Positions 1 through 18,140 of a stretch of DNA of 26,533 nt are shown one piece after another; position 1 is the first letter of the stretch; the number at the start of each line of letters is the position of its first letter. The stretch spans positions 1 to 26,533 of the forward strand of contig LWDP01000022.1 in assembly GCA_002087915.1 (NCBI GenBank), given 5' to 3'. The notes beneath the pieces were generated by a model that saw only the letters and a program-made list of their open reading frames with translations, made no database searches and was not told the DNA's origin. A program made the translations under genes and the position numbers. Origin of the DNA: Enterospora canceri. Its lineage: Eukaryota; Microsporidia; Enterocytozoonidae.

Positions 1-200
1 TATCCACTGCAATCATGGTTGTAGCACCTGAACGCCATTCCATCTTTGTTGCGGGTGTATGGCTTGCATACCATGTCAACAGAGCACGTTGGACATGCAA
101 CCACTCGCTTCAACACTCCTCTAACTCTGAGGAACTCCACGAGACCCGCAACAGGCCCATTCATAACAGGTTCCAGCACATTCTGGTAGTAGCTAAACAT
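1..200 (-). CDS. Merlin/IS1016-type transposase, N-terminal fragment cut by window edge
   Basis: The first 66 codons of a gene that continues beyond the window. Residues 36-64 form a zinc ribbon (C36-x2-C39-x19-C59-x4-C64, with DGMAFRC before the third Cys). This is the layout found at the N-terminus of ISXO2/IS1016-like DDE transposases, called Merlin elements in eukaryotes and known from several microsporidia. The start was chosen because ATG at 200 is preceded by TTTTTACCCTT, the start-proximal signal of most genes here. The catalytic DDE region lies outside the window, so whether the element is intact cannot be judged. A transposase would cut and paste the element at its terminal repeats; a domesticated ISXO2-like protein is the alternative. 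The assignment rests on the zinc ribbon alone. Confidence 0.7.
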   Translation of the reverse strand, partial: MFSYYQNVLEPVMNGPVAGLVEFLRVRGVLKRVVACPTCSVDMVCKPYTRNKDGMAFRCYNHDCSG

Positions 201-297: not shown

Positions 298-837
298 CTA
301 CTTTTTATAAATTTTCTCTCTCTCATCATCCAATAGTTTGATTTCTTTATTGTAGATCAGTATTTCATTCAGGAACAAGGCTATTCCTTCTTTCTTAGCG
401 TGAATAAAACCATAATAGAGCCTTTTGATATCCTTTTCACACATTAGTGATTTGAAACATGCTATTTCACATATCCTGCGTCTGAGTATTAAGAAGGATG
501 TGAATTCACATTTCTTTTTGAACTCTTTCCAATTACTTGTGTCATCCAATACCTGTTTATCCAAAAGGGCATCAAACTTCTCAATTAATTTCACCATATC
601 TTTTATGTTATTGATTTTCTTATCCAATTCAATTATCTCGCGCTCTTTCCGTACAAGCTCATTCGTAATACACATCTTTTCTCTAGTTATCTTGTTTTTC
701 TTTAGTCTTTGACGTGCTAAGCTTCTATATTTATATTTTAGTTCTAAATTAGTTAAACAGCGGTTGGTTCGGCATGGATTGGCCTGTTTAATTGGTGTAG
801 TATTGATAAAATAAACCAATAATTGAATAATAAACAT
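298..837 (-). CDS. Secreted coiled-coil family protein A (tandem array, most distal member)
   Basis: A 179-residue protein of unknown function. The start at 837 is supported by TTTACCCATA directly before the ATG. Residues 1-20 are a hydrophobic signal-peptide-like stretch (MFIIQLLVYF onwards). The remainder is Lys/Glu-rich and predicted by eye to be helical, with a coiled-coil-like segment at about 45-95 (LIEKFDALL box at 84-92) and another at the C-terminus. Size, signal peptide, the aromatic box and position match the other genes of the array, but the Pro-Glu-Phe box of its better-preserved relatives is not recognisable, so family membership is inferred. Its stop lies next to the palindrome. 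Confidence 0.8.
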   Translation of the reverse strand: MFIIQLLVYFINTTPIKQANPCRTNRCLTNLELKYKYRSLARQRLKKNKITREKMCITNELVRKEREIIELDKKINNIKDMVKLIEKFDALLDKQVLDDTSNWKEFKKKCEFTSFLILRRRICEIACFKSLMCEKDIKRLYYGFIHAKKEGIALFLNEILIYNKEIKLLDDEREKIYKK

Positions 838-900
838 TATGGGTAAATTTTTAGGTAAACTATTTCTGTTCTACAACATATACCTTAATAATTTATCATA

Positions 901-1540
901 TCAACCAGATATTTCATTTGGATTACTTGTAAAATATTTCACATTTGATTTTTCTTTGATTTTTGTGGTTATTTCACTATGATACTGTTTTAACTCCAAC
1001 AACCTTTCTTTTTTTGCCTTAATCAGATCCCCACAATCCAATATCTCCTCAATAACATCTGATAATTCTTGATTCATCAAATTGTTGTCTGTTGCACTTG
1101 CCTTGAATTCCATAGTGAATTTAAGCACCATTTTACAATTATATTTTGCTTTTATCATGTTTTTCAGTCCTTGTACAATTTGCATATGTAAATTATTCCA
1201 TTCTCTTAAGTACATTTTCATGGTTCCCTAAATCTTCTACCTCATTATCTACCATAATTTCCAGCTTATTTAACCTAACAAGCAGCTTCTCCAAGTCGTT
1301 TTCTCCCAACAACATATTATTTCTAGTTTGTAGACCCAATATGATTTCATATTTTCCCTGATATTCCATCCTTTTAAACACATCCAATTTTATCTTGTTG
1401 GCTATCTTGGCTCTTTTCAATGCATCATCTTCTTTAATCTGATTCTTTAACACTCGCATATGCTCGTCCAATTCATCTTCAATCATCTGTTGTAAATTTA
1501 TTACACTGGTGAATATCACAGTTATCAATAAAACAATCAT
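901..1540 (-). pseudogene. Secreted coiled-coil family member B, broken by a frameshift
   Basis: Two overlapping reading frames together make one gene of normal family size. Frame 1 starts at ATG 1540, which directly follows TATTTTACCC, and encodes a signal peptide (MIVLLITVIFTSVINL) and a charged helix; it ends at 1193. Frame 2 is open from a TAG at 1230-1228 down to a stop at 901. The span is 640 nt, i.e. 213 codons plus one base, so one extra base (or loss of two) between about 1193 and 1227 explains the break. Either it is a recent pseudogene, a sequencing or assembly error, or a rarely used frameshift site. The product would be about 212 residues, like its neighbours. No function is known. 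Confidence 0.7.
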
Positions 1541-1550
1541 GGGTAAAATA
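1541..1550 (-). promoter_or_regulatory. Start-proximal TATTTTACCC signal deciding the start of member B
   Basis: TATTTTACCC abuts ATG 1540 on the minus strand. It moves the start 14 codons downstream of the longest open frame (1582), puts the signal peptide at the very N-terminus and removes the overlap with the neighbouring MPE1 gene. Confidence 0.7.
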
Positions 1551-1556
1551 CATAAA

Positions 1557-2228
1557 CTATTCAATTTTATTCCATTTCTCATATTCTTTTACCTCATCCT
1601 GTTTTCTAGAACTCTCTTTAAGCCACATTATCGTCTTTCTGCACCTTGGACACCTTTCATTCCTTACTGCACATCCCTTACAGAAATAATGCTGACATGA
1701 TGACATCTCTGCCTCATTCAACAGCCCATTGCATTCTTCACACTTCAATCCATCTGGAATATTCTTATATTTTATCAAATTTTTCTGCTTTTTCCATTCT
1801 TGTATTCGTGGTTTCATTATTCTCAAATTCGCCTCACTTGCATTATTTTGCTGAATATTCTGTAAATTTGGACAGTGTTGGATGTAATGGCCCTTTTGGT
1901 TGCATTTGAAACACGTGTATGTCTCTGGTGGCACCCTACTGTACGAAATGAGCCTTTGTTTGAACTCCATATTATTCCTGTTGTTACTCATCCACAGTGG
2001 TATCTTTTCCACTATCAAATTAGCAAATCGGTCTATTTTGACGTATTCGTCTTCCAATTTCTCATCTGTCTCTGCATCGTAGAATACCAGGTCAAAGTCC
2101 TTGCTGTACATCCTTCTCTGGCTGATTATCTCATACTTCAGCTCCCAGAGACTCAATGATTCAGAATCAAAGAATATTTTGCTGTAGTTTTTGTATGATC
2201 TGAATCTGTAGTTTATTGAATAGGCCAT
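1557..2228 (-). CDS. MPE1: Mpe1/RBBP6-type mRNA 3'-end processing factor
   Basis: A 223-residue protein with the three domains of Mpe1/RBBP6 in order: a DWNN ubiquitin-like fold (about 1-80), a CCHC zinc knuckle (C106, C109, H114, C119; CFKCNQKGHYIQHCP) and a RING/U-box-like C3HC4 finger (C163, C166, C178, H180, C183, C186, C193, C196). In yeast this protein is a nuclear subunit of the cleavage and polyadenylation factor that helps the complex recognise the poly(A) signal. Yeast Mpe1 has about 440 residues, so this is a stripped-down form ending soon after the finger. The start is preceded by TTTTCCACCCCAAA. It lies inside the array of secreted proteins, 16 bp from member B and 22 bp from member C, without any functional link I can see. 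Confidence 0.92.
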   Translation of the reverse strand: MAYSINYRFRSYKNYSKIFFDSESLSLWELKYEIISQRRMYSKDFDLVFYDAETDEKLEDEYVKIDRFANLIVEKIPLWMSNNRNNMEFKQRLISYSRVPPETYTCFKCNQKGHYIQHCPNLQNIQQNNASEANLRIMKPRIQEWKKQKNLIKYKNIPDGLKCEECNGLLNEAEMSSCQHYFCKGCAVRNERCPRCRKTIMWLKESSRKQDEVKEYEKWNKIE

Positions 2229-2250
2229 TTTGGGGTGGAAAATAACCAGG

Positions 2251-2865
2251 TCATTTATTCTTCATTTTTATGATTTCAATCTTAAATTTGTCAATATCAC
2301 TAACAATTTTACGCCTTGCTTTCATCAGAACACGTACTTTACTCTCCTTTTGCTGTATCTTTAGTTTGTTGTCATGTTTTTTCTGCTGTATTTCTCTTAA
2401 CATTTCCCTTATCTCATTCAAAGTCTCATTCTTAGTCTGATTATACCTATTCAGTATCACAGTTAAATCCATTTCATCCTTAATAAACCTATATTCAGGT
2501 AAAAGTGTTAATACAAAGGTTGTTATGTCATAATCATTCAACAATCCGATATTATTTTCACCATTATTCTGCATTTCAATCACATCAGATAATACTCTGC
2601 CAAATGCGTCTATCACAAAGACCAGACTATTGAAATTGTCTTTTTTAGATTCCAAACCTCTTATTTCCGCCCTTGTGTTCTTAATTATTTCATTATTTCT
2701 TCTTATTTTTTGAGTTATTGATTTTTTCATTTTCTTGAAATCCTCTAGAAGATCATTCATCTCATTTACTGAACTTCCAGCATCTGATACTCCTTTAACC
2801 TGAGTGAAATCAGATCCAGCTATTTTATTCAGCATCATTACAATACAGCTAATCATGAACATCAT
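2251..2865 (-). CDS. Secreted coiled-coil family protein C
   Basis: A 204-residue protein of unknown function. ATG 2865 follows TTGCACCCCAA. Residues 1-17 form a signal-peptide-like segment (MMFMISCIVMMLNKIAG). A charged helix or coiled coil covers about 35-80, followed by the family core: VIDAFGRVL (84-92), NNGENN (100-105), LLPEYRFI (121-128), then a second long Lys/Glu-rich coiled coil to the C-terminus. It is most similar by eye to the gene at 4258-4899, with the same FGxVL, NGE and PE-aromatic boxes at the same spacing, which points to duplication. It is separated from the next gene by only 15 bp. Secretion is inferred from the N-terminus; no cysteine framework or enzyme motif is seen. 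Confidence 0.85.
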   Translation of the reverse strand: MMFMISCIVMMLNKIAGSDFTQVKGVSDAGSSVNEMNDLLEDFKKMKKSITQKIRRNNEIIKNTRAEIRGLESKKDNFNSLVFVIDAFGRVLSDVIEMQNNGENNIGLLNDYDITTFVLTLLPEYRFIKDEMDLTVILNRYNQTKNETLNEIREMLREIQQKKHDNKLKIQQKESKVRVLMKARRKIVSDIDKFKIEIIKMKNK

Positions 2866-2880
2866 TTGGGGTGCAATAAT

Positions 2881-3513
2881 TTACTGATGGCTTCCAAGTT
2901 CTTCACGTATCCTTTTTTCTGTCTTTTGAAAGTACTTGAGTTCATCTTTTAACCTACTGGTTTTACTTACATTACGAAACAGTTTGTCCTTGTACTCTTC
3001 CAGTTGCTTACCCATTTCATCATATTTACTTTCTAACATCAATTTTTCTTCTTTGATTCTAGTAAAATCCCTGTTCAATACACAATGAAAGTGAGCTTCC
3101 ACTGACAACAAATTATCGTGATTAAATACACATTCAAATCCAGGTATCTTCTCAATTATTTTCTTGGTTTCCACGTATGCATTATTTAAAATGGTTGTAC
3201 ACAATTCTGTGTTTTCTATTGCAATCAATGACTGCAATAACACTTTCATTAGGTTAAGTTTATCTACCCATACTTTATATCCTTCCATTTTCTCTTTCAA
3301 CAAATCGCTGGACTCTTGTAACACAAACGCCTCTTGAACTATTTTTCCATGGGTTTCTTGTAGGGTGCTTAATTCAACATTTGTTGTTTCCTGTTTCTTT
3401 GTTAGATTTTTAAGTTCAATTGTTTTTCGAAAGATGTAGTTTCTGTTAGCATTCTTATATAGATGACTGTTTCCAGTTGCACATCCAATCGTTGATATCA
3501 GGTTCAATAACAT
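2881..3513 (-). CDS. Secreted coiled-coil family protein D
   Basis: A 210-residue protein of unknown function. The ATG at 3513 directly follows TTATTACCCCC. A short N-terminal signal-peptide-like segment (MLLNLISTIGCATG) is followed by a long coiled coil (about 28-80), a hydrophobic helix (LMKVLLQSLIAIE, 88-100) and the family box KIPGFECVF (122-130, Gly replacing Glu of PEF). A second coiled coil with heptad-like Leu spacing runs from about 150 to the end. The family position of the PGF box (124-126) matches members C and F within two residues. All features point to a secreted or endomembrane-lumen helical protein. Confidence 0.83.
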   Translation of the reverse strand: MLLNLISTIGCATGNSHLYKNANRNYIFRKTIELKNLTKKQETTNVELSTLQETHGKIVQEAFVLQESSDLLKEKMEGYKVWVDKLNLMKVLLQSLIAIENTELCTTILNNAYVETKKIIEKIPGFECVFNHDNLLSVEAHFHCVLNRDFTRIKEEKLMLESKYDEMGKQLEEYKDKLFRNVSKTSRLKDELKYFQKTEKRIREELGSHQ

Positions 3514-3623
3514 GGGGGTAATAAAACATAATAATTTATAGCTGAGTTTAATTGATTTATCAATATGTTTGATTAGTGTTATTCCAATTTGGGTTCATCT
3601 AGTAATTCATTTCGTTCCTTCTT

Positions 3624-4231
3624 CTATTTATCTGTCGATGGAGATTCGTTACTCTTTATATCATAAAAACAATCCATCTCTTCCTTTTTCCTCCTCAACA
3701 AGATGAGTTCATTACTTCTCTGTTCCAACAACATTTCTAGATACTTTATATCAGCTTCAATCTCGTTCATTTTCCTACTTCTAACCTGATTATAGAAATC
3801 CAACTCTTTCTGTAAATCACCTGTTACAAACATACCTTCAAAGCCTGGTGTATTACTCAGCACATTTCTTATTATTAAATAACGCAATACAGTGCTATTA
3901 GTTGTTCCAGCAATTATATCTTTTATAACACCATCAAATATGCTAATGAAGAATAACAGAGATGAGTGGTTGTAAATGTCTGCTGTGAGTATATTAATGA
4001 GGTATTCTGTATATGATATAGTACTTTTGAGTATTTTGTGAGCATAAAACCCATCTTTCTTAATAGTGATTGCATTATTAAGTTCTTTATCCAGTTTTAT
4101 GATTTCATTTGATATTCGTGCACATTCAAACTCCCTGCATTGCCTTATATTATCAACTAAAGTATTGCTTATAATATTGTACGGACTTCCTAAAGCAGTA
4201 CAGGATATGAAATATTTAATAAAAGAAACAT
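3624..4231 (-). pseudogene. Secreted coiled-coil family member E, frameshifted in its signal peptide
   Basis: ATG 4231 follows GTATTACCCT, but its frame stops after 13 codons at 4192. A second frame, open across this region and continuing without interruption to the stop at 3624, carries the family core: FISIFDGVI, then NTPGFEGMF and a C-terminal coiled coil of Glu/Arg/Lys-rich heptads. The span of 608 nt equals 203 codons minus one base, the usual family size, so loss of one base within about 4190-4228 accounts for the break. The T-rich tract coding the signal peptide is the likely site. No ATG precedes the long frame. Pseudogene, slippage-prone site or sequencing error are all possible. A downstream start inside the long frame would yield a protein lacking the signal peptide. 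Confidence 0.72.
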
Positions 4232-4241
4232 AGGGTAATAC
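4232..4241 (-). promoter_or_regulatory. Start-proximal TATTACCCT signal marking the original start of member E
   Basis: The minus strand reads TATTACCCT before ATG 4231. This is the only ATG with the signal near the long frame, and it is in the wrong frame, which is the main argument for a frameshift. Confidence 0.6.
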
Positions 4242-4257
4242 AAATATGATTATAAAT

Positions 4258-4899
4258 TTATTGCACCAGTTTCTTTTCTAAGCTTTTCTTATAGAAAATC
4301 TTGTTCCTTAGTTTCTTAATATCATGAATTAGTTGATTCAAATACTCATTTTGTGTGTTCGCTTCTTTTTTCAATACCATCATTTCATTGTTAACTTGGG
4401 TCAGTCTTGTTGATAGCATCATTATGTACACGTTGATACAATGTATTTTGGCATATTTGATCTTTTCAAATTCATCCAATGTTTGATCGTATTCTTTTTG
4501 GTAGAATATTGTCATAAATTCAGGTATCTTCATTATCACTTTTCTTATCTCTAAATAATGTACCAGTATATCACCTATATCCTCACCATTCTTTTTCAAT
4601 ACAACTACTGCTTTCAGTACTTCTCCAAACAGCTGTATCACGTAAATCAGTTTTTCATGATTATCTTTTTCCTTCTTTATGCAAGTATGTAATTCCGTTA
4701 AATTTGCTATTTTGATAATCATGCTGTTTATGTTCTTTGCAGCAACCTTCCTATTCGCATCTAACACAACTTTTTCCGCATTAAGTGCCTCTAACTCATC
4801 ACGGTTTCTCTTTAGTGCTGCACTTTTAAGACATTCCTGTTCCATTTTGGTGTCACCTGTACAATTCACTATAAGTAATGTTGATAATAAATTATACAT
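4258..4899 (-). CDS. Secreted coiled-coil family protein F
   Basis: A 213-residue protein of unknown function. ATG 4899 directly follows TTATAACCC. The N-terminal 14 residues (MYNLLSTLLIVNCT) look like a signal peptide. A coiled coil spans about 20-80, then the family core: VIQLFGEVLKAVV (87-99), NGEDIGDIL (104-112), KIPEFMTIF (124-132) and a Tyr/Leu/Phe pattern (YDQTLDEFEKI). A second coiled coil follows (about 160-210). It is the clearest representative of the family core together with C and G. There are no recognisable enzyme motifs. Confidence 0.86.
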   Translation of the reverse strand: MYNLLSTLLIVNCTGDTKMEQECLKSAALKRNRDELEALNAEKVVLDANRKVAAKNINSMIIKIANLTELHTCIKKEKDNHEKLIYVIQLFGEVLKAVVVLKKNGEDIGDILVHYLEIRKVIMKIPEFMTIFYQKEYDQTLDEFEKIKYAKIHCINVYIMMLSTRLTQVNNEMMVLKKEANTQNEYLNQLIHDIKKLRNKIFYKKSLEKKLVQ

Positions 4900-4946
4900 G
4901 GGTTATAAAATAATTTATCTGTTACCTATTGATATTGCAACTGTAT

Positions 4947-5570
4947 TTACTGTTTACATCTAAACAGATTTTCAAGTTTCTTTCTTCGACGTAACAAGTT
5001 AATGCCGATGGTCTTGTTTCTCCTTATTTTTATTGCTAGTGATGTGTTATTGCTGTTTAATCTGTCACCAACCAACCTAATGAAATCTATTTTCTGCTCT
5101 ACTGTTACACTTAAGTCTTCTTTGATCTGTTCAATCCTTCTAACTACATCTTCTCGCACATTGTTAAATTGCAACAATATTCCATTATAATTATCACTAT
5201 CAAATATTCTAGTAAATTCTGGTATTATTTGAATAATCTGTGCCTGCATGTTGAATTTTTCTATTAATTTCTTACTGATATTTGCATTATTGTATTCCTT
5301 GAGACACAATATAGATAATGTTTTCTCAAACGCCGATATCATCTGAATCAGTGCATTGTAATTCTCTTTCTCTACTTTAAACTTGCCTATTCTCCTATTT
5401 GTTTTAACAATCAGATTTGCGTCATTATCTATTAATTGCCTTAATTCTTTTATTTTCATTGCATTTTCTCTTTTCTCTTTTTCCAACTCTGTTATTTTCG
5501 TATTATGAAACTCATACAAGCTAACACCAGTACCTGTAGAACAATACAAGCAACTCATCATCATTAACAT
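4947..5570 (-). CDS. Secreted coiled-coil family protein G
   Basis: A 207-residue protein of unknown function. ATG 5570 was chosen because TATTTACCCTT stands directly before it; the open frame extends a few codons further without a usable ATG. Residues 1-15 (MLMMMSCLYCSTGTG) form a short, Met-rich signal-like segment. The coiled coil at about 22-75 is followed by the family core MISAFEKTL (77-85), IIPEFTRIF (115-123) and the pattern YNGILLQFNNVRED. The C-terminus is a basic helix ending in cysteine and lysine. The architecture and spacing match genes C and F. Confidence 0.85.
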   Translation of the reverse strand: MLMMMSCLYCSTGTGVSLYEFHNTKITELEKEKRENAMKIKELRQLIDNDANLIVKTNRRIGKFKVEKENYNALIQMISAFEKTLSILCLKEYNNANISKKLIEKFNMQAQIIQIIPEFTRIFDSDNYNGILLQFNNVREDVVRRIEQIKEDLSVTVEQKIDFIRLVGDRLNSNNTSLAIKIRRNKTIGINLLRRRKKLENLFRCKQ

Positions 5571-5579
5571 AAGGGTAAA
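5571..5579 (-). promoter_or_regulatory. Start-proximal TTTACCC signal of member G
   Basis: TTTACCCTT lies immediately before ATG 5570 on the minus strand and decides the start. Confidence 0.65.
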
Positions 5580-5604
5580 TATCAATAAAATAATTTATTT
5601 CCTA

Positions 5605-6084
5605 TCATTTCTCACCTAAAGCCAATGCTATTTCAGACTGATTGAACCGTATTGCTGTTCTGGATCTTATTATAAACTCCTCTACTTGACACATAAAGAC
5701 CTTGATTTTCTTATAGACTTCCTTCTTATTCTTATTGAATATTGAAATATTCATTAGCATACTTTTTGTCTTACACATTTCCTTCAATTCTGGTAGCATC
5801 TTTAGTACATTGATATAGTCTAAATATTGTCTTTCTCTCATCAATGGACGTTTCCTTGCATTTGATTCGTTCACAAACCAATCAAAATCACTCACCAAAT
5901 TAGATAAACACGCAAGGTTCCTTGCATGGACCAATGCTGCATTTAGTTCAGACTGGTAGACCAAGGTCATTGCATTTAGTTCAACCACACGTTTATTATT
6001 CCAACTTCTCATCATTCTCTCATGTCCATAAACCGTTCTAGCACACCAACACATTTCAACCACCATTAAAACAGTTAATATCAT
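5605..6084 (-). CDS. Secreted coiled-coil family protein H (short, divergent)
   Basis: A 159-residue protein of unknown function. The open frame runs further upstream, but ATG 6084 is preceded by AATTTACCCTAAA, gives an N-terminal hydrophobic segment (MILTVLMVVEMCWCA) and removes an overlap with the gene that stops at 6101. The mature part has a charged helix, then VSDFDWFV and KMLPELKEM (95-103), which corresponds to the PEF box of its neighbours, and a C-terminal helical stretch. It lacks about 45 residues relative to the array average, mainly the first coiled coil and the C-terminal end. Membership is likely but less sure than for C, D, F and G. Confidence 0.78.
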   Translation of the reverse strand: MILTVLMVVEMCWCARTVYGHERMMRSWNNKRVVELNAMTLVYQSELNAALVHARNLACLSNLVSDFDWFVNESNARKRPLMRERQYLDYINVLKMLPELKEMCKTKSMLMNISIFNKNKKEVYKKIKVFMCQVEEFIIRSRTAIRFNQSEIALALGEK

Positions 6085-6100: not shown

Positions 6101-6694
6101 TTACACCGATAAATCACTCGTATCAATTCCACTGCTTATTTCATCAATATTAATTGATACCTTGCTATTCTTCTTCACTTCTCTAGTTATACTACTGAAT
6201 ACTATTATTCCCATCACCATCTTATCAATATCAACTACATCATTCATAAATGATACCACTGGTGTCAACTCACTTTTTTCGTATTCATCAAAGAATGGCT
6301 TTCCCAATATAATCCATAGTTCCCATAGGACTAATGTGTTGTATGCGACGTAGGCTATTCCATACTTCTGGAATAACACAATGAAACAGAATATCACTAT
6401 TGATACTTCCATAGTTAATATTCCATCTGATTCACTCATCATGAACAGTAATACGTGTGATAGTATTATACTGGATAGTATTGAATGAACATACTTGATC
6501 ACACTATTAATATGATTATTGATGTACAGAATTATGGTAGTAGAAATCAGTGACAATATGACTGCTATTTTGATAGGTGTAACGTACTCTATGGTGTAAT
6601 AGAATATGCTAAATATGCTGTACAGTAACAGATCATCAGAATAGATCAGTACTGCAATTAGGGTGATTATGACTAATTGGATGTAAATCAGCAT
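6101..6694 (-). CDS. Multi-pass membrane protein, unknown function
   Basis: A 197-residue protein from the first ATG (6694); the frame is open three codons further without an ATG. It has about six hydrophobic segments: residues 2-18, 24-40, 43-60, 70-87, 97-112 and 115-130. A hydrophilic C-terminal tail of about 60 residues ends in a Ser/Asp-rich stretch (SSGIDTSDLSV). No family signature was recognised. No clear C-rich signal precedes this ATG, unlike its neighbours, so the start is less certain. It lies 16 bp upstream of the array of secreted proteins on the same strand. Location in an endomembrane or plasma membrane is all that can be inferred. Confidence 0.72.
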   Translation of the reverse strand: MLIYIQLVIITLIAVLIYSDDLLLYSIFSIFYYTIEYVTPIKIAVILSLISTTIILYINNHINSVIKYVHSILSSIILSHVLLFMMSESDGILTMEVSIVIFCFIVLFQKYGIAYVAYNTLVLWELWIILGKPFFDEYEKSELTPVVSFMNDVVDIDKMVMGIIVFSSITREVKKNSKVSINIDEISSGIDTSDLSV

Positions 6695-13660: not shown

Positions 13661-14980
13661 TCATGTTTCAATTTTGCCATCGAGCATCTGCTTCCTCTTT
13701 TCAGTCATCCTCAGTTCTCCGCCCTTAATGAATGCGTGACTCAGTAGCACATTTACGTCTGGTCTCCTACTAACATCACTGGTCAAACAGAGTGCCATGA
13801 AGTCCCTGATTGCGTACGAATAGTTCTTGTTGAACTCGTAGTTCCTGTAGAAGTCATCGTAGTCGTATGCGTCACACTTAGCCCCCTCGTACTCGCCTAT
13901 ACACTTGTCACCATCCTTCATCACCCCTAAGTCAGCCAGTATCATCCCAAACATGAATACGTCTGAGTGGGTTCCAGCACTTTTGGTGCTACGCTCTTCC
14001 TTGGTGCAGTACCTAATTGGCCTACCACTCTTCAACAACGTGGTGTGGTTCACACAGTCAGTCAATCGCGATATTTTGAATACAACTTTAGCACTAACGG
14101 AGTAGCCCGAAATAGATCCCGTATCTAAGTTCAGCAGTGCTATACCCAGCCTATGCAACTCACTTAGGCCACTCAAAACATCCCTCGCGTATCTCCTAAT
14201 GAGATCTTCAGTCTCCTCATAATTTGTGCCCATTGCCCTAATAGCGGTCTTAAAGTGGTCTTCTGCTATTTCTGGTCCCATAATGAGAGTTTCAACGAAG
14301 TTGACCATTTTCACATTCGTCCTACTAAATTTCATCACCTTCATGACGTCTATCACGTTCTCATGTTTCAGTTTCGCTATTTTGTTGCTGATGGCCAGCA
14401 ACTTCCTCCTGTTTGCAACACTCTTCTCTTCAGTGACCACTTTGATCCACACATCCCCAAAATTGTTGATGTACCTGATCGTGTTCCCTGACAGAATATG
14501 GAGGTTATTTGGCTTATCTCTGTGGCAATTCAATTTTTCCAAGTCTGTTGTTATCATGTCATCTACTAAGTTAAAGAATTTCCTGATCTTATCGTAGTTA
14601 CTCTCACCAGGTAATTTCTTCTTCCCTCTCTTTTTTTGTTCCTTTTTTCTCATAAGTTGATCTATTTTATTCACATTTGGGTAATTGATCAGTTTTGTGG
14701 TATACGCACCTGGAAATGGTGTATTATAGATCACACTATTGTCTACCATCACAATAAAGTGTGGTGTAGGTATCGGTGTAGGCGTAGGTGTAGTATTTGT
14801 TTCTGATTGTGATTCCTTTGATCTAGTCTCAATTATATTCTGTGACTGAATTTTCGCATCATCATCCTTCATATTTCCTAGAGCCACTATCAGTCCCACT
14901 ATTCCCCCTACAGCAAGTAGAACAACAACTCCCAATGCTATTTTGTGCTTATTTGATAATTTGCTTCCAATCTTGTTCAT
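13661..14980 (-). CDS. Membrane-anchored pseudokinase
   Basis: A 439-residue protein with a single N-terminal hydrophobic helix (14-34, Gly/Val/Leu-rich) after a basic start, so probably a type II membrane protein or signal anchor. A Thr/Pro linker (TPTPTPIPTP, 64-73) and a basic stretch (111-124) lead to a degenerate kinase domain (about 165-420). A VWIKVV segment with K180 matches the ATP-binding strand, and SDVFMFGMILADL (339-351) and SRRPDVNVLLSHAFI (404-418) match the C-lobe. The catalytic residues are lost: the HRDLKPEN segment reads LLNLDTGS (282-289) and DFG reads SRL (304-306). No glycine loop is seen. A signalling scaffold is plausible. Its promoter carries five ATCRCCC units. Confidence 0.82.
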   Translation of the reverse strand: MNKIGSKLSNKHKIALGVVVLLAVGGIVGLIVALGNMKDDDAKIQSQNIIETRSKESQSETNTTPTPTPIPTPHFIVMVDNSVIYNTPFPGAYTTKLINYPNVNKIDQLMRKKEQKKRGKKKLPGESNYDKIRKFFNLVDDMITTDLEKLNCHRDKPNNLHILSGNTIRYINNFGDVWIKVVTEEKSVANRRKLLAISNKIAKLKHENVIDVMKVMKFSRTNVKMVNFVETLIMGPEIAEDHFKTAIRAMGTNYEETEDLIRRYARDVLSGLSELHRLGIALLNLDTGSISGYSVSAKVVFKISRLTDCVNHTTLLKSGRPIRYCTKEERSTKSAGTHSDVFMFGMILADLGVMKDGDKCIGEYEGAKCDAYDYDDFYRNYEFNKNYSYAIRDFMALCLTSDVSRRPDVNVLLSHAFIKGGELRMTEKRKQMLDGKIET

Positions 14981-15136: not shown

Positions 15137-15181
15137 ATGTTTCATATCCACCTAAAACAGTCTCAATTCTCTCTCATATGA
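15137..15181 (+). other. 14-codon upstream ORF overlapping the next start by ATGA
   Basis: ATG 15137 directly follows CTCCC, the usual start-signal position, and encodes 14 residues (MFHIHLKQSQFSLI) before TGA at 15179-15181. The stop overlaps the ATG at 15178 of the secreted Ser-rich protein in the arrangement ATGA. It may be a regulatory upstream ORF or mark the true transcription start of that gene. Confidence 0.45.
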
Positions 15182-15801
15182 TACTTCTATCACTCACACT
15201 ATTCACCTACTGCACCACCAGTGGAATATTCACCAGTTTATTTGGAAATAGCCCACTGATCAGGTCACACATGAAGGAGTATCACAGTCTCAAGAACAAG
15301 GTACACAGCCACAACTCCAAGGCAAACAGGGAGAACAGGTCGATTCCAAACCACATGCTGACGGTAGAGAGGCCCAAGAAGGAGAGAGACTGTCGCAAGG
15401 CCAAAAACAGCCTCTATAAAATGAGGAGAAACGTGTTGAAGACGACTGAGAAGCTGGCTGATATCAACAGGGGAGTTAAGAGACAGCATGGGAGGATGAA
15501 TAGGATGGACATGGGCAAGGATGACTCATCTGATGATTCGAGTGATAGTAGTTTGAGTAGTAGTGACGATAGGCGTGGCAGCAAGAGAGACGGTAAGTAC
15601 GGTAGAAGACGTAGGAAATCAGGCAGGGGCTATGGTGGCAGTAGTTCAGGCTGTTCTGACTCGTCTCGAAGCAGTGACAGTTCAAGCAGTTCCAATTCAG
15701 TAACCAGGAAAATAGACAAAGTATCACATAGGTTCAAGGATAAAGCACGAGACGTAATGAAAATGAGAAGTGCAGCAAAACACTTATTTGGAATGAAGTA
15801 G
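15178..15801 (+). CDS. Secreted Ser/basic-rich protein, unknown function
   Basis: A 207-residue protein. The N-terminus MILLSLTLFTYCTTSG is a convincing signal peptide. The mature protein is very basic, with a Lys/Arg/His-rich first half, then acidic serine clusters (DDSSDDSSDSSLSSSDD, about 114-130), an Arg/Lys/Gly block (KYGRRRRKSGRGYGG) and a second serine cluster (SSSGCSDSSRSSDSSSSSNS, from about 154), ending in a basic helix. The serine clusters flanked by Asp look like casein-kinase phosphorylation sites. Candidates are a spore-wall, polar-tube-associated or exported protein; a lysine-rich polar tube protein of the PTP2 type is conceivable but has a different cysteine pattern. No homologue was recognised. 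Confidence 0.78.
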   Translation: MILLSLTLFTYCTTSGIFTSLFGNSPLIRSHMKEYHSLKNKVHSHNSKANRENRSIPNHMLTVERPKKERDCRKAKNSLYKMRRNVLKTTEKLADINRGVKRQHGRMNRMDMGKDDSSDDSSDSSLSSSDDRRGSKRDGKYGRRRRKSGRGYGGSSSGCSDSSRSSDSSSSSNSVTRKIDKVSHRFKDKARDVMKMRSAAKHLFGMK

Positions 15802-17366: not shown

Positions 17367-18140
17367 ATGTTCTCCCTAACAATGACAATGACAATAACAA
17401 TAACAATCACAATATTAAATCATCTTTCATTTATCACCTGCGCCAATCCTGGAATACCTCCTAGTGCCTACTACACGGATATGGTAGACAGCCACTACTG
17501 CACACTCTCAGTCCCAGTCGCACACTCCCATGAGATGACGTCATCATCAACTCCTATTTATCACAGTCTATTTTCACTAAGAATGAATTCGTCTACTGGA
17601 ATCATTGGGAATGAGACGTACCATACTACGGTGGACGTAGGAGTGAGACTGGTCTACGAGGACGAGGATGACTGGTCTAGGATGCACAGGGGCATCAATG
17701 GAATGAGAATGAGGATGGATATTGAGAGAATAGTTCAGATTAATATTGATCAAATATTCCTGGGACTGCTTCAGAGGCCATTTGTTCAGAGTAGGGCAGA
17801 ATACAGAATTAGTTCATCAGGAACACTATTCATCAGCAACATGGAGGTGAAGAATGAGATAGTGGTGCATATTAGGGGTAGAAGAGAGGTGGAAAAGGTG
17901 GATAAAATTGAAACAGGGGAAATAAGAATCATTCCATACACCAAGTACGATAAGAAGAATGACATGTTGGTGAATAGGAAGGTGGTAGAACGGCTGAATG
18001 AGTATTTGGAGTGGGTGAGTAAGTACGGATGTGAGGAACAAAGGGGTGATACCGTTTTAGGTGATAAATCAGAATACGAAAAGTATCAGGAAGAAATGAC
18101 CAAAGTGTACGAAGAATACATGAGAGAGGTAGATGAGTGA
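17367..18140 (+). CDS. Secreted protein, unknown function
   Basis: A 257-residue protein from the first ATG (17367, after TCATCC). The N-terminus has a hydrophobic stretch built from a Thr-Met/Thr-Ile dipeptide run (TMTMTITITITIL, encoded by an ACAATG/ACAATA repeat) and probably ends at ITCANPG, so it looks like a signal peptide. The mature part has potential N-glycosylation sites (NSS, NET), three cysteines, a beta-rich middle section (about 60-190) and a Tyr/Glu-rich helical C-terminus. There is no second membrane segment. I do not recognise a family. A host-exposed or ER-lumen role is possible. Confidence 0.7.
   Translation: MFSLTMTMTITITITILNHLSFITCANPGIPPSAYYTDMVDSHYCTLSVPVAHSHEMTSSSTPIYHSLFSLRMNSSTGIIGNETYHTTVDVGVRLVYEDEDDWSRMHRGINGMRMRMDIERIVQINIDQIFLGLLQRPFVQSRAEYRISSSGTLFISNMEVKNEIVVHIRGRREVEKVDKIETGEIRIIPYTKYDKKNDMLVNRKVVERLNEYLEWVSKYGCEEQRGDTVLGDKSEYEKYQEEMTKVYEEYMREVDE

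What the first reader, a model, noticed from the sequence alone, without database searches (positions are those of the whole stretch)
298..6084. Tandem array of eight secreted coiled-coil paralogues of unknown function
All eight genes (298-837, 901-1540, 2251-2865, 2881-3513, 3624-4231, 4258-4899, 4947-5570, 5605-6084) lie on the minus strand, have a start signal, a signal-peptide-like N-terminus, a length of about 160-213 residues and a charged helical body. Established: microsporidia expand lineage-specific secreted families. Inferred: this is one diverging family acting outside the parasite cell or in the spore or polar-tube pathway. I recognise no described domain in it, so it is the best candidate for a new system in the window.
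Basis: partly seen in the sequence, partly recalled or inferred. Interest (0 to 1): 0.85.

Follow-up and report, generated by a model that had tools for sequence, protein, structure and literature searches.

The report
Small tandem family of secreted microsporidian rods
A microsporidian parasite carries a row of related but strongly diverged, probably secreted, rod-shaped helical proteins for which we found no relatives elsewhere; it looks like a new family, but of a kind already well known in these parasites.

Summary
On the minus strand there are eight array positions, each with an ATG preceded by the microsporidian CCC motif. Six are intact genes (159-213 aa). Two are not: g2 (901-1540) changes frame, and the ATG of g5 (3624-4231) is out of frame with its body. 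An unrelated conserved gene (MPE1/RBBP6, 1557-2228) interrupts the array.

Profile tests show real homology for five members (g3-g7). It is likely but marginal for g1 and g8, and undetectable for g2. Similarity is concentrated in a central 'tip' with a proline kept in six of seven aligned members; the helical arms diverge. AlphaFold2 models g6 as a long antiparallel helical hairpin with a small helical cap (pLDDT 90.9). PDB matches are generic helical hairpins.

Eight of nine pieces found no copy outside this contig in the 2.24 Mb assembly. Two searches of 5.8 billion proteins returned only the window's own proteins (MPE1 control: 22 relatives), but each missed a window protein of its own query, so absence is weak evidence.

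Best reading: a single-locus, probably lineage-specific secreted family, most likely binding host proteins. Such families are well documented in microsporidia: a new member of a known kind. Secretion and function are inferred.

The parts
298..837 (-). g1, 179 aa, intact; marginal family member
   Evidence: ORF. 12.1 bits leave-one-out, best shuffle 8.5; 13.5 bits vs core4 (best shuffle 9.7) but 7.8 vs core5, below the best shuffle 9.8. Lacks the tip proline. Folded alone: pLDDT 51, inconclusive.
901..1540 (-). g2, interrupted: two overlapping frames (1193-1540 with ATG and signal-like start; 901-1221 in another frame)
   Evidence: No detectable similarity in profiles. Membership rests on position and N-terminus only.
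1557..2228 (-). MPE1/RBBP6 (DWNN, zinc knuckle, RING-like); conserved neighbour inside the array, not a member
   Evidence: Pfam DWNN 7.7e-21; 57% identity to Nucleospora cyclopteri NUSPORA_01832.
2251..2865 (-). g3, 204 aa, core member
   Evidence: Leave-one-out 40.7 bits; BLASTP to g7 E 4.7e-8 and g6 2.1e-7.
2881..3513 (-). g4, 210 aa, member
   Evidence: 24.2 bits vs core4 profile; leave-one-out from the 7-member set only 11.4 bits vs best shuffle 10.1; as a genome query it finds only itself.
3624..4231 (-). g5, core member by its body, but the CCC-linked ATG (4231) is out of frame with the body
   Evidence: Body 46.1 bits leave-one-out; frames.
4258..4899 (-). g6, 213 aa, core member; modelled structure
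   Evidence: 45.1 bits leave-one-out; genome search with g6 finds g5 (5.5e-7), g3 (1.8e-5), g7 (5.3e-4); AlphaFold2 pLDDT 90.9.
4947..5570 (-). g7, 207 aa, core member
   Evidence: 41.6 bits leave-one-out.
5605..6084 (-). g8, 159 aa, marginal family member (tip region only)
   Evidence: 9.5 bits leave-one-out vs best shuffle 8.8; 12.6 bits vs core4 (best shuffle 9.7), 9.0 vs core5 (best shuffle 9.8).

Best explanation
A tandemly duplicated, strongly diverged family of small proteins that probably enter the secretory pathway. SHOWN by computation: common ancestry of g3, g4, g5, g6 and g7 (likely g1 and g8), one genomic locus in this assembly as far as single-protein searches see, a conserved central tip with more divergent helical arms, and own CCC start signals. 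INFERRED: cleavage of the short hydrophobic N-terminus, export to the host cell (cytosol or nucleus), action by protein binding, and restriction to this lineage. In this model each paralogue is a hairpin of two long helices (87 and 76 residues in g6) capped by a small helical tip. The arm surfaces have diverged to bind different or co-evolving host partners, while the tip keeps the hairpin folded. The interrupted g2 and g5 would be copies in decay, as expected of birth-and-death evolution.
For: Homology above shuffles and control ORFs. Tip (g6 79-149) mean BLOSUM62 0.78 against 0.08 and 0.46 for the arms. The only proline in g3, g4, g6 and g7 is the tip proline, also present in g5 and g8. Helices 17-103, 109-122, 126-133 and 137-212 at mean pLDDT 90.9. 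Hydrophobic N-termini at 8 of 8 positions. No other copy in the genome for 8 of 9 pieces queried. No outside relative returned, although a control gene returns 22. [quoted passage not shown] Antonospora signal-peptide proteins without membrane spans were shown to be secreted into infected cells (PMC3976299 abstract).
Against: No trained signal-peptide prediction, expression, proteome or polymorphism data. The protein searches are leaky: one search did not return g7 and one search did not return g3, though both are in that database (P0027, P0003) and were rows of the query; relatives at about 20% identity could well be missed. Two of eight positions are interrupted. g2 is unrelated by profile; g1 and g8 are marginal and fail one design. 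Helical periodicity is weak in most members. In the body, the best 19-residue hydrophobic mean is 1.75 in g6 and 1.65 in g5, just above the customary 1.6 for membrane segments (cut-off recalled), though the window's Noc2 (1.96) and WD-repeat (1.69) proteins, presumably soluble, reach similar values. High pLDDT for long helices is easily obtained.
Confidence: 0.45

Rival explanations
1. The proteins are secreted but structural: helical rods laid down in the spore wall or polar tube, paralogues forming mixed assemblies.
For: Signal-like N-termini and rod-like model. All eight array genes have an AAATT[ATG] element within 50 b of the start, against 7 of 22 others. In E. cuniculi an AAATTT-like element marks ribosomal-protein and highly expressed genes (PMC2803860 passages).
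Against: Structural spore proteins would be expected to be more conserved; no relative was returned (leaky searches). The element was chosen after looking, the array is AT-rich (2.0 of 8 expected from shuffles), and promoters copied by tandem duplication are not independent.
Confidence: 0.2
2. The N-terminal segment is an uncleaved anchor and the proteins face the host from the parasite plasma membrane, or remain in the ER/Golgi.
For: Hydrophobic peaks start at residue 1-6, with no positive charge before them in the seven sequences that begin with ATG; no small-residue cleavage candidate in g2N. The tip helix of g6 and g5 is itself rather hydrophobic (1.75, 1.65).
Against: The N-terminal stretches are short; in the g6 model residues 1-4 and 8-15 are below pLDDT 50 and lie outside the confident rod.
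Confidence: 0.17
3. A decaying array without present function.
For: g2 and g5 are interrupted; the contig ends in a multi-copy transposon-like element about 100 b beyond g1.
Against: Six of eight frames are intact at 159-213 codons in roughly 32% GC DNA, with start signals kept at 8 of 8. The interruptions may be assembly errors, not testable here.
Confidence: 0.1
4. No family at all: unrelated helical proteins that look alike by composition.
For: g2 shows no similarity; g1 and g8 are marginal; helical, charged composition is shared.
Against: Four members at 40-46 bits in leave-one-out profiles against at most 13.6 for 1800 shuffles; a whole-genome search with g6 hits only array members.
Confidence: 0.05

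Closest known systems
Large clade-specific families of microsporidia with signal peptides or membrane segments (NemLGF1, NemLGF5, PanLGF1, EbrLGF1; PMC5423893, PMC10393165)
   Same: Paralogous, enriched in targeting signals, mostly restricted to one clade, mostly without a known domain; a C-terminal bundle of alpha helices is reported for NemLGF1 (PMC10393165 section 8).
   [quoted passage not shown] here at most eight positions at one locus, five to seven supported. No direct comparison with these families was made beyond the searches.
InterB / DUF1609 family (NemLGF26)
   Same: Multi-copy microsporidian family of unknown function.
   Different: No DUF1609 match listed for any member at E up to 1.
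Generic long helical hairpins: SMC arm segments, dynein stalk, chemoreceptor and PI3K inter-SH2 hairpins
   Different: Within the range that the tool states as common for helical models; no Foldseek match at E <= 0.001. Shape likeness, not kinship.
EnP1 (PMC12795459 abstract) and the secreted serpin of Nosema bombycis (PMC11741654 listing)
   Same: Experimentally studied microsporidian proteins acting on the host cell.
   Different: Named as precedents for the proposed role only; no sequence comparison made.

Membership tests
Microsporidian large gene family (LGF, sensu PMC5423893/PMC10393165) | At least 10 homologous members in one species | tested here: not met
   At most 8 positions; 8 of 9 pieces queried find nothing outside contig C17 at E <= 10. 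Single-sequence queries, counts are lower bounds, and the contig breaks in a repeat beside g1, so this holds for the assembly only.
Microsporidian large gene family (LGF) | At least half of members with signal peptide or transmembrane segment | tested here: inconclusive
   All 8 N-termini have a hydrophobic peak by Kyte-Doolittle, but no trained predictor was run and the g5 segment has no in-frame ATG.
Microsporidian large gene family (LGF) | Restricted to one species or genus (true of most, not all, such families) | tested here: inconclusive
   No outside relative in two word-based searches, which also missed g7 and g3 respectively although these were in query and database; the MPE1 control returns 22 relatives.
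One paralogous family within the array | Sequence similarity above composition-matched shuffles | tested here: met
   Clearly for g3, g5, g6, g7 and g4; marginal for g1, g8; not detected for g2.
InterB / DUF1609 and other Pfam families | Pfam match above the curated cut-off | tested here: not met
   No member reaches a cut-off.
SMC arm / dynein stalk / chemoreceptor coiled coils | Fold match standing out from unrelated helical bundles | tested here: inconclusive
Spore wall or polar tube proteins | Localisation in spore wall or polar tube | not testable with these tools
   No proteome or imaging data.

The most novel reading that the evidence does not exclude
The array is a self-contained, co-expressed set of helical-hairpin rods that share one tip and differ along their arms, secreted together and assembling with one another (or each with its own host partner) into a host-side scaffold: an orphan protein family born and diversified at one locus of a strongly reduced genome.
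Probability: 0.12. Interest if true: 0.55.

Novelty: new member of a known kind. Interest (0 to 1): 0.3.

Why it matters
If the proteins are host-exposed, this is a compact, single-locus case of how a reduced microsporidian genome creates and diversifies host-interaction proteins, small enough to study member by member. The conserved tip with more divergent arms gives a direct hypothesis about which surface is under host pressure. The general phenomenon is already documented.

Full report
OBSERVATION. The window is C17:1-26533 of an unnamed 2.24 Mb, 75-contig genome. It is microsporidian: the MPE1/RBBP6 gene at 1557-2228 has its best named relative in Nucleospora cyclopteri (57% identity; the other 57% hit is unnamed), and the seven other hits that carry a species name are also microsporidian. 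An enterocytozoonid relative is therefore likely, but this rests on one gene; sequenced Enterocytozoonidae have 3.1-4.84 Mb assemblies with 22-40% GC (PMC12134460 passages), whereas this assembly is smaller and the window runs from 30 to 57% GC. Six of the eight claimed genes are intact ATG frames at the stated coordinates. Two are not. The stated lengths of 901-1540 and 3624-4231 are not multiples of three. g2 consists of two overlapping frames, and the CCC-linked ATG of g5 opens a 13-codon frame while the family-like body lies in another frame that has no ATG upstream of the body. Whether these are pseudogenes, assembly errors or spliced genes cannot be told here; the spliceosome marker search was uninformative.

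START SIGNALS. All 8 array ATGs have CCC within the 10 bases upstream, against 12 of 22 other window genes tested (Fisher p 0.02). The other genes were picked by hand from the ORFs; a 23rd, at the right contig end, was left out because most of its upstream is not in the window. All 8 have AAATT[ATG] within 50 bases, against 7 of 22 (Fisher p 0.001); shuffled upstream bases give 2.0 expected of 8, and 2.35 of 22 for the others. This pattern was chosen after viewing the upstream sequences. CCC-like and AAATTT-like elements are described for microsporidia, the latter on ribosomal-protein and highly expressed genes (PMC2803860, passages seen). Shared promoters fit tandem duplication, and perhaps strong expression.

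HOMOLOGY. BLASTP among the members gives E 4.7e-8 (g3-g7), 2.1e-7 (g3-g6), 2.1e-4 (g3-g5), 1.0e-9 (g5-g6), 2.8e-6 (g6-g7), 5.8e-4 (g4-g7) and 0.012 (g1-g5) in a database of 11 sequences. Leave-one-out profiles against 11 window proteins, 120 control ORFs and 1800 shuffles gave g3 40.7, g5 46.1, g6 45.1, g7 41.6 bits; g1 12.1, g4 11.4 and g8 9.5, each just above the best shuffle of its run (8.5, 10.1, 8.8). With a four-member core g4 rises to 24.2, g1 to 13.5 and g8 to 12.6 (best shuffle 9.7). With a five-member core g8 (9.0) and g1 (7.8) fall below the best shuffle (9.8). g2 is never above noise in these profiles. A pairwise test of 36 pairs with 200 local shuffles each agrees: g1 is supported only through g5 (0 of 200 reach it) and weakly g3 (11 of 200), g8 weakly through g3 (5 of 200); g2N reaches its best with g8 (7 of 200), which among 36 pairs is no evidence. 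As genome queries, g6, g7, g3 and g5 find other array members; g1, g4, g8 and g2C find only themselves. So: five members established, two likely, one by position only.

SECRETION. N-terminal 8-residue hydrophobic peaks are 1.69-3.60 in the array (g5 lowest, read without its own ATG) against a lower spread in 23 other genes (Mann-Whitney p 0.0014); five of those 23 also reach 1.9 (the kinase-like gene, 15178, 17367, 22336 and 6101). Body stretches of 19 residues stay at or below 1.40 except g5 (1.65) and g6 (1.75), in the tip helix; comparable values occur in the window's Noc2 and WD-repeat proteins. This is suggestive only.

DISTRIBUTION. Genome searches with g1, g3, g4, g5 body, g6, g7, g8 and g2C found only array members; g2N was not used as a query. 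Two profile searches of 5.8 billion proteins (2547 and 3013 candidates) returned only the window's own proteins: g6, g4, g3 and g7, g8, g1, while MPE1, which sits inside the array, returned 22 relatives. The searches are leaky: g7 was a row of the first query and g3 of the second, both are in the database, and neither was returned there. Absence of relatives is therefore weak evidence for lineage restriction. The contig ends beside g1 in an element present at 8 places on 7 contigs, four of them within 312 b of a contig start; at one place (C72) an IS1595-type transposase match, with a stop inside, follows. The array may be longer than what is assembled.

READING. The best explanation is a probably lineage-specific, tandemly duplicated family of secreted helical-hairpin proteins, most likely host-exposed and acting by protein binding. 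Kinship and single locus are computed; export, binding and lineage restriction are inferred from the precedent of clade-specific host-exposed families (PMC5423893 passages; PMC10393165 section 8) and demonstrated secretion in Antonospora (PMC3976299 abstract). Structural spore roles, membrane-anchored display and decay remain open. Filed as a new member of a known kind: the formal LGF threshold of 10 members is not met on this assembly.

Noticed in passing
1-200 (-): The contig edge carries part of a multi-copy element (8 places on 7 contigs, four of them within 312 b of a contig start); on C72 an IS1595-type DDE transposase match lies just downstream. The assembly seems to break at this repeat, so the array may continue.
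   Followed up: partly
13661-14980 (-): Kinase-like protein with a single N-terminal hydrophobic anchor (Pfam PK_Tyr_Ser-Thr 3.9e-9); six further places in the genome at E <= 1e-5. The usual catalytic motifs look degenerate by eye; not tested.
   Followed up: partly
15178-15801 (+) and 17367-18140 (+): Two further proteins with signal-like N-termini and no Pfam match at E up to 0.01; the first is rich in Ser, Lys and Arg by eye.
   Followed up: no
1557-2228 (-): MPE1/RBBP6-type gene between array members; its position could serve as a synteny anchor in relatives.
   Followed up: partly
6101-6694 (-): Hydrophobic, probably multi-pass membrane protein with no Pfam match directly upstream of g8, without a CCC start signal.
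   Followed up: no
window: GC content rises from about 0.30-0.34 in the first 7 kb to 0.57 at 16-17 kb and falls again past 23 kb; the array lies in the AT-rich part.
   Followed up: no
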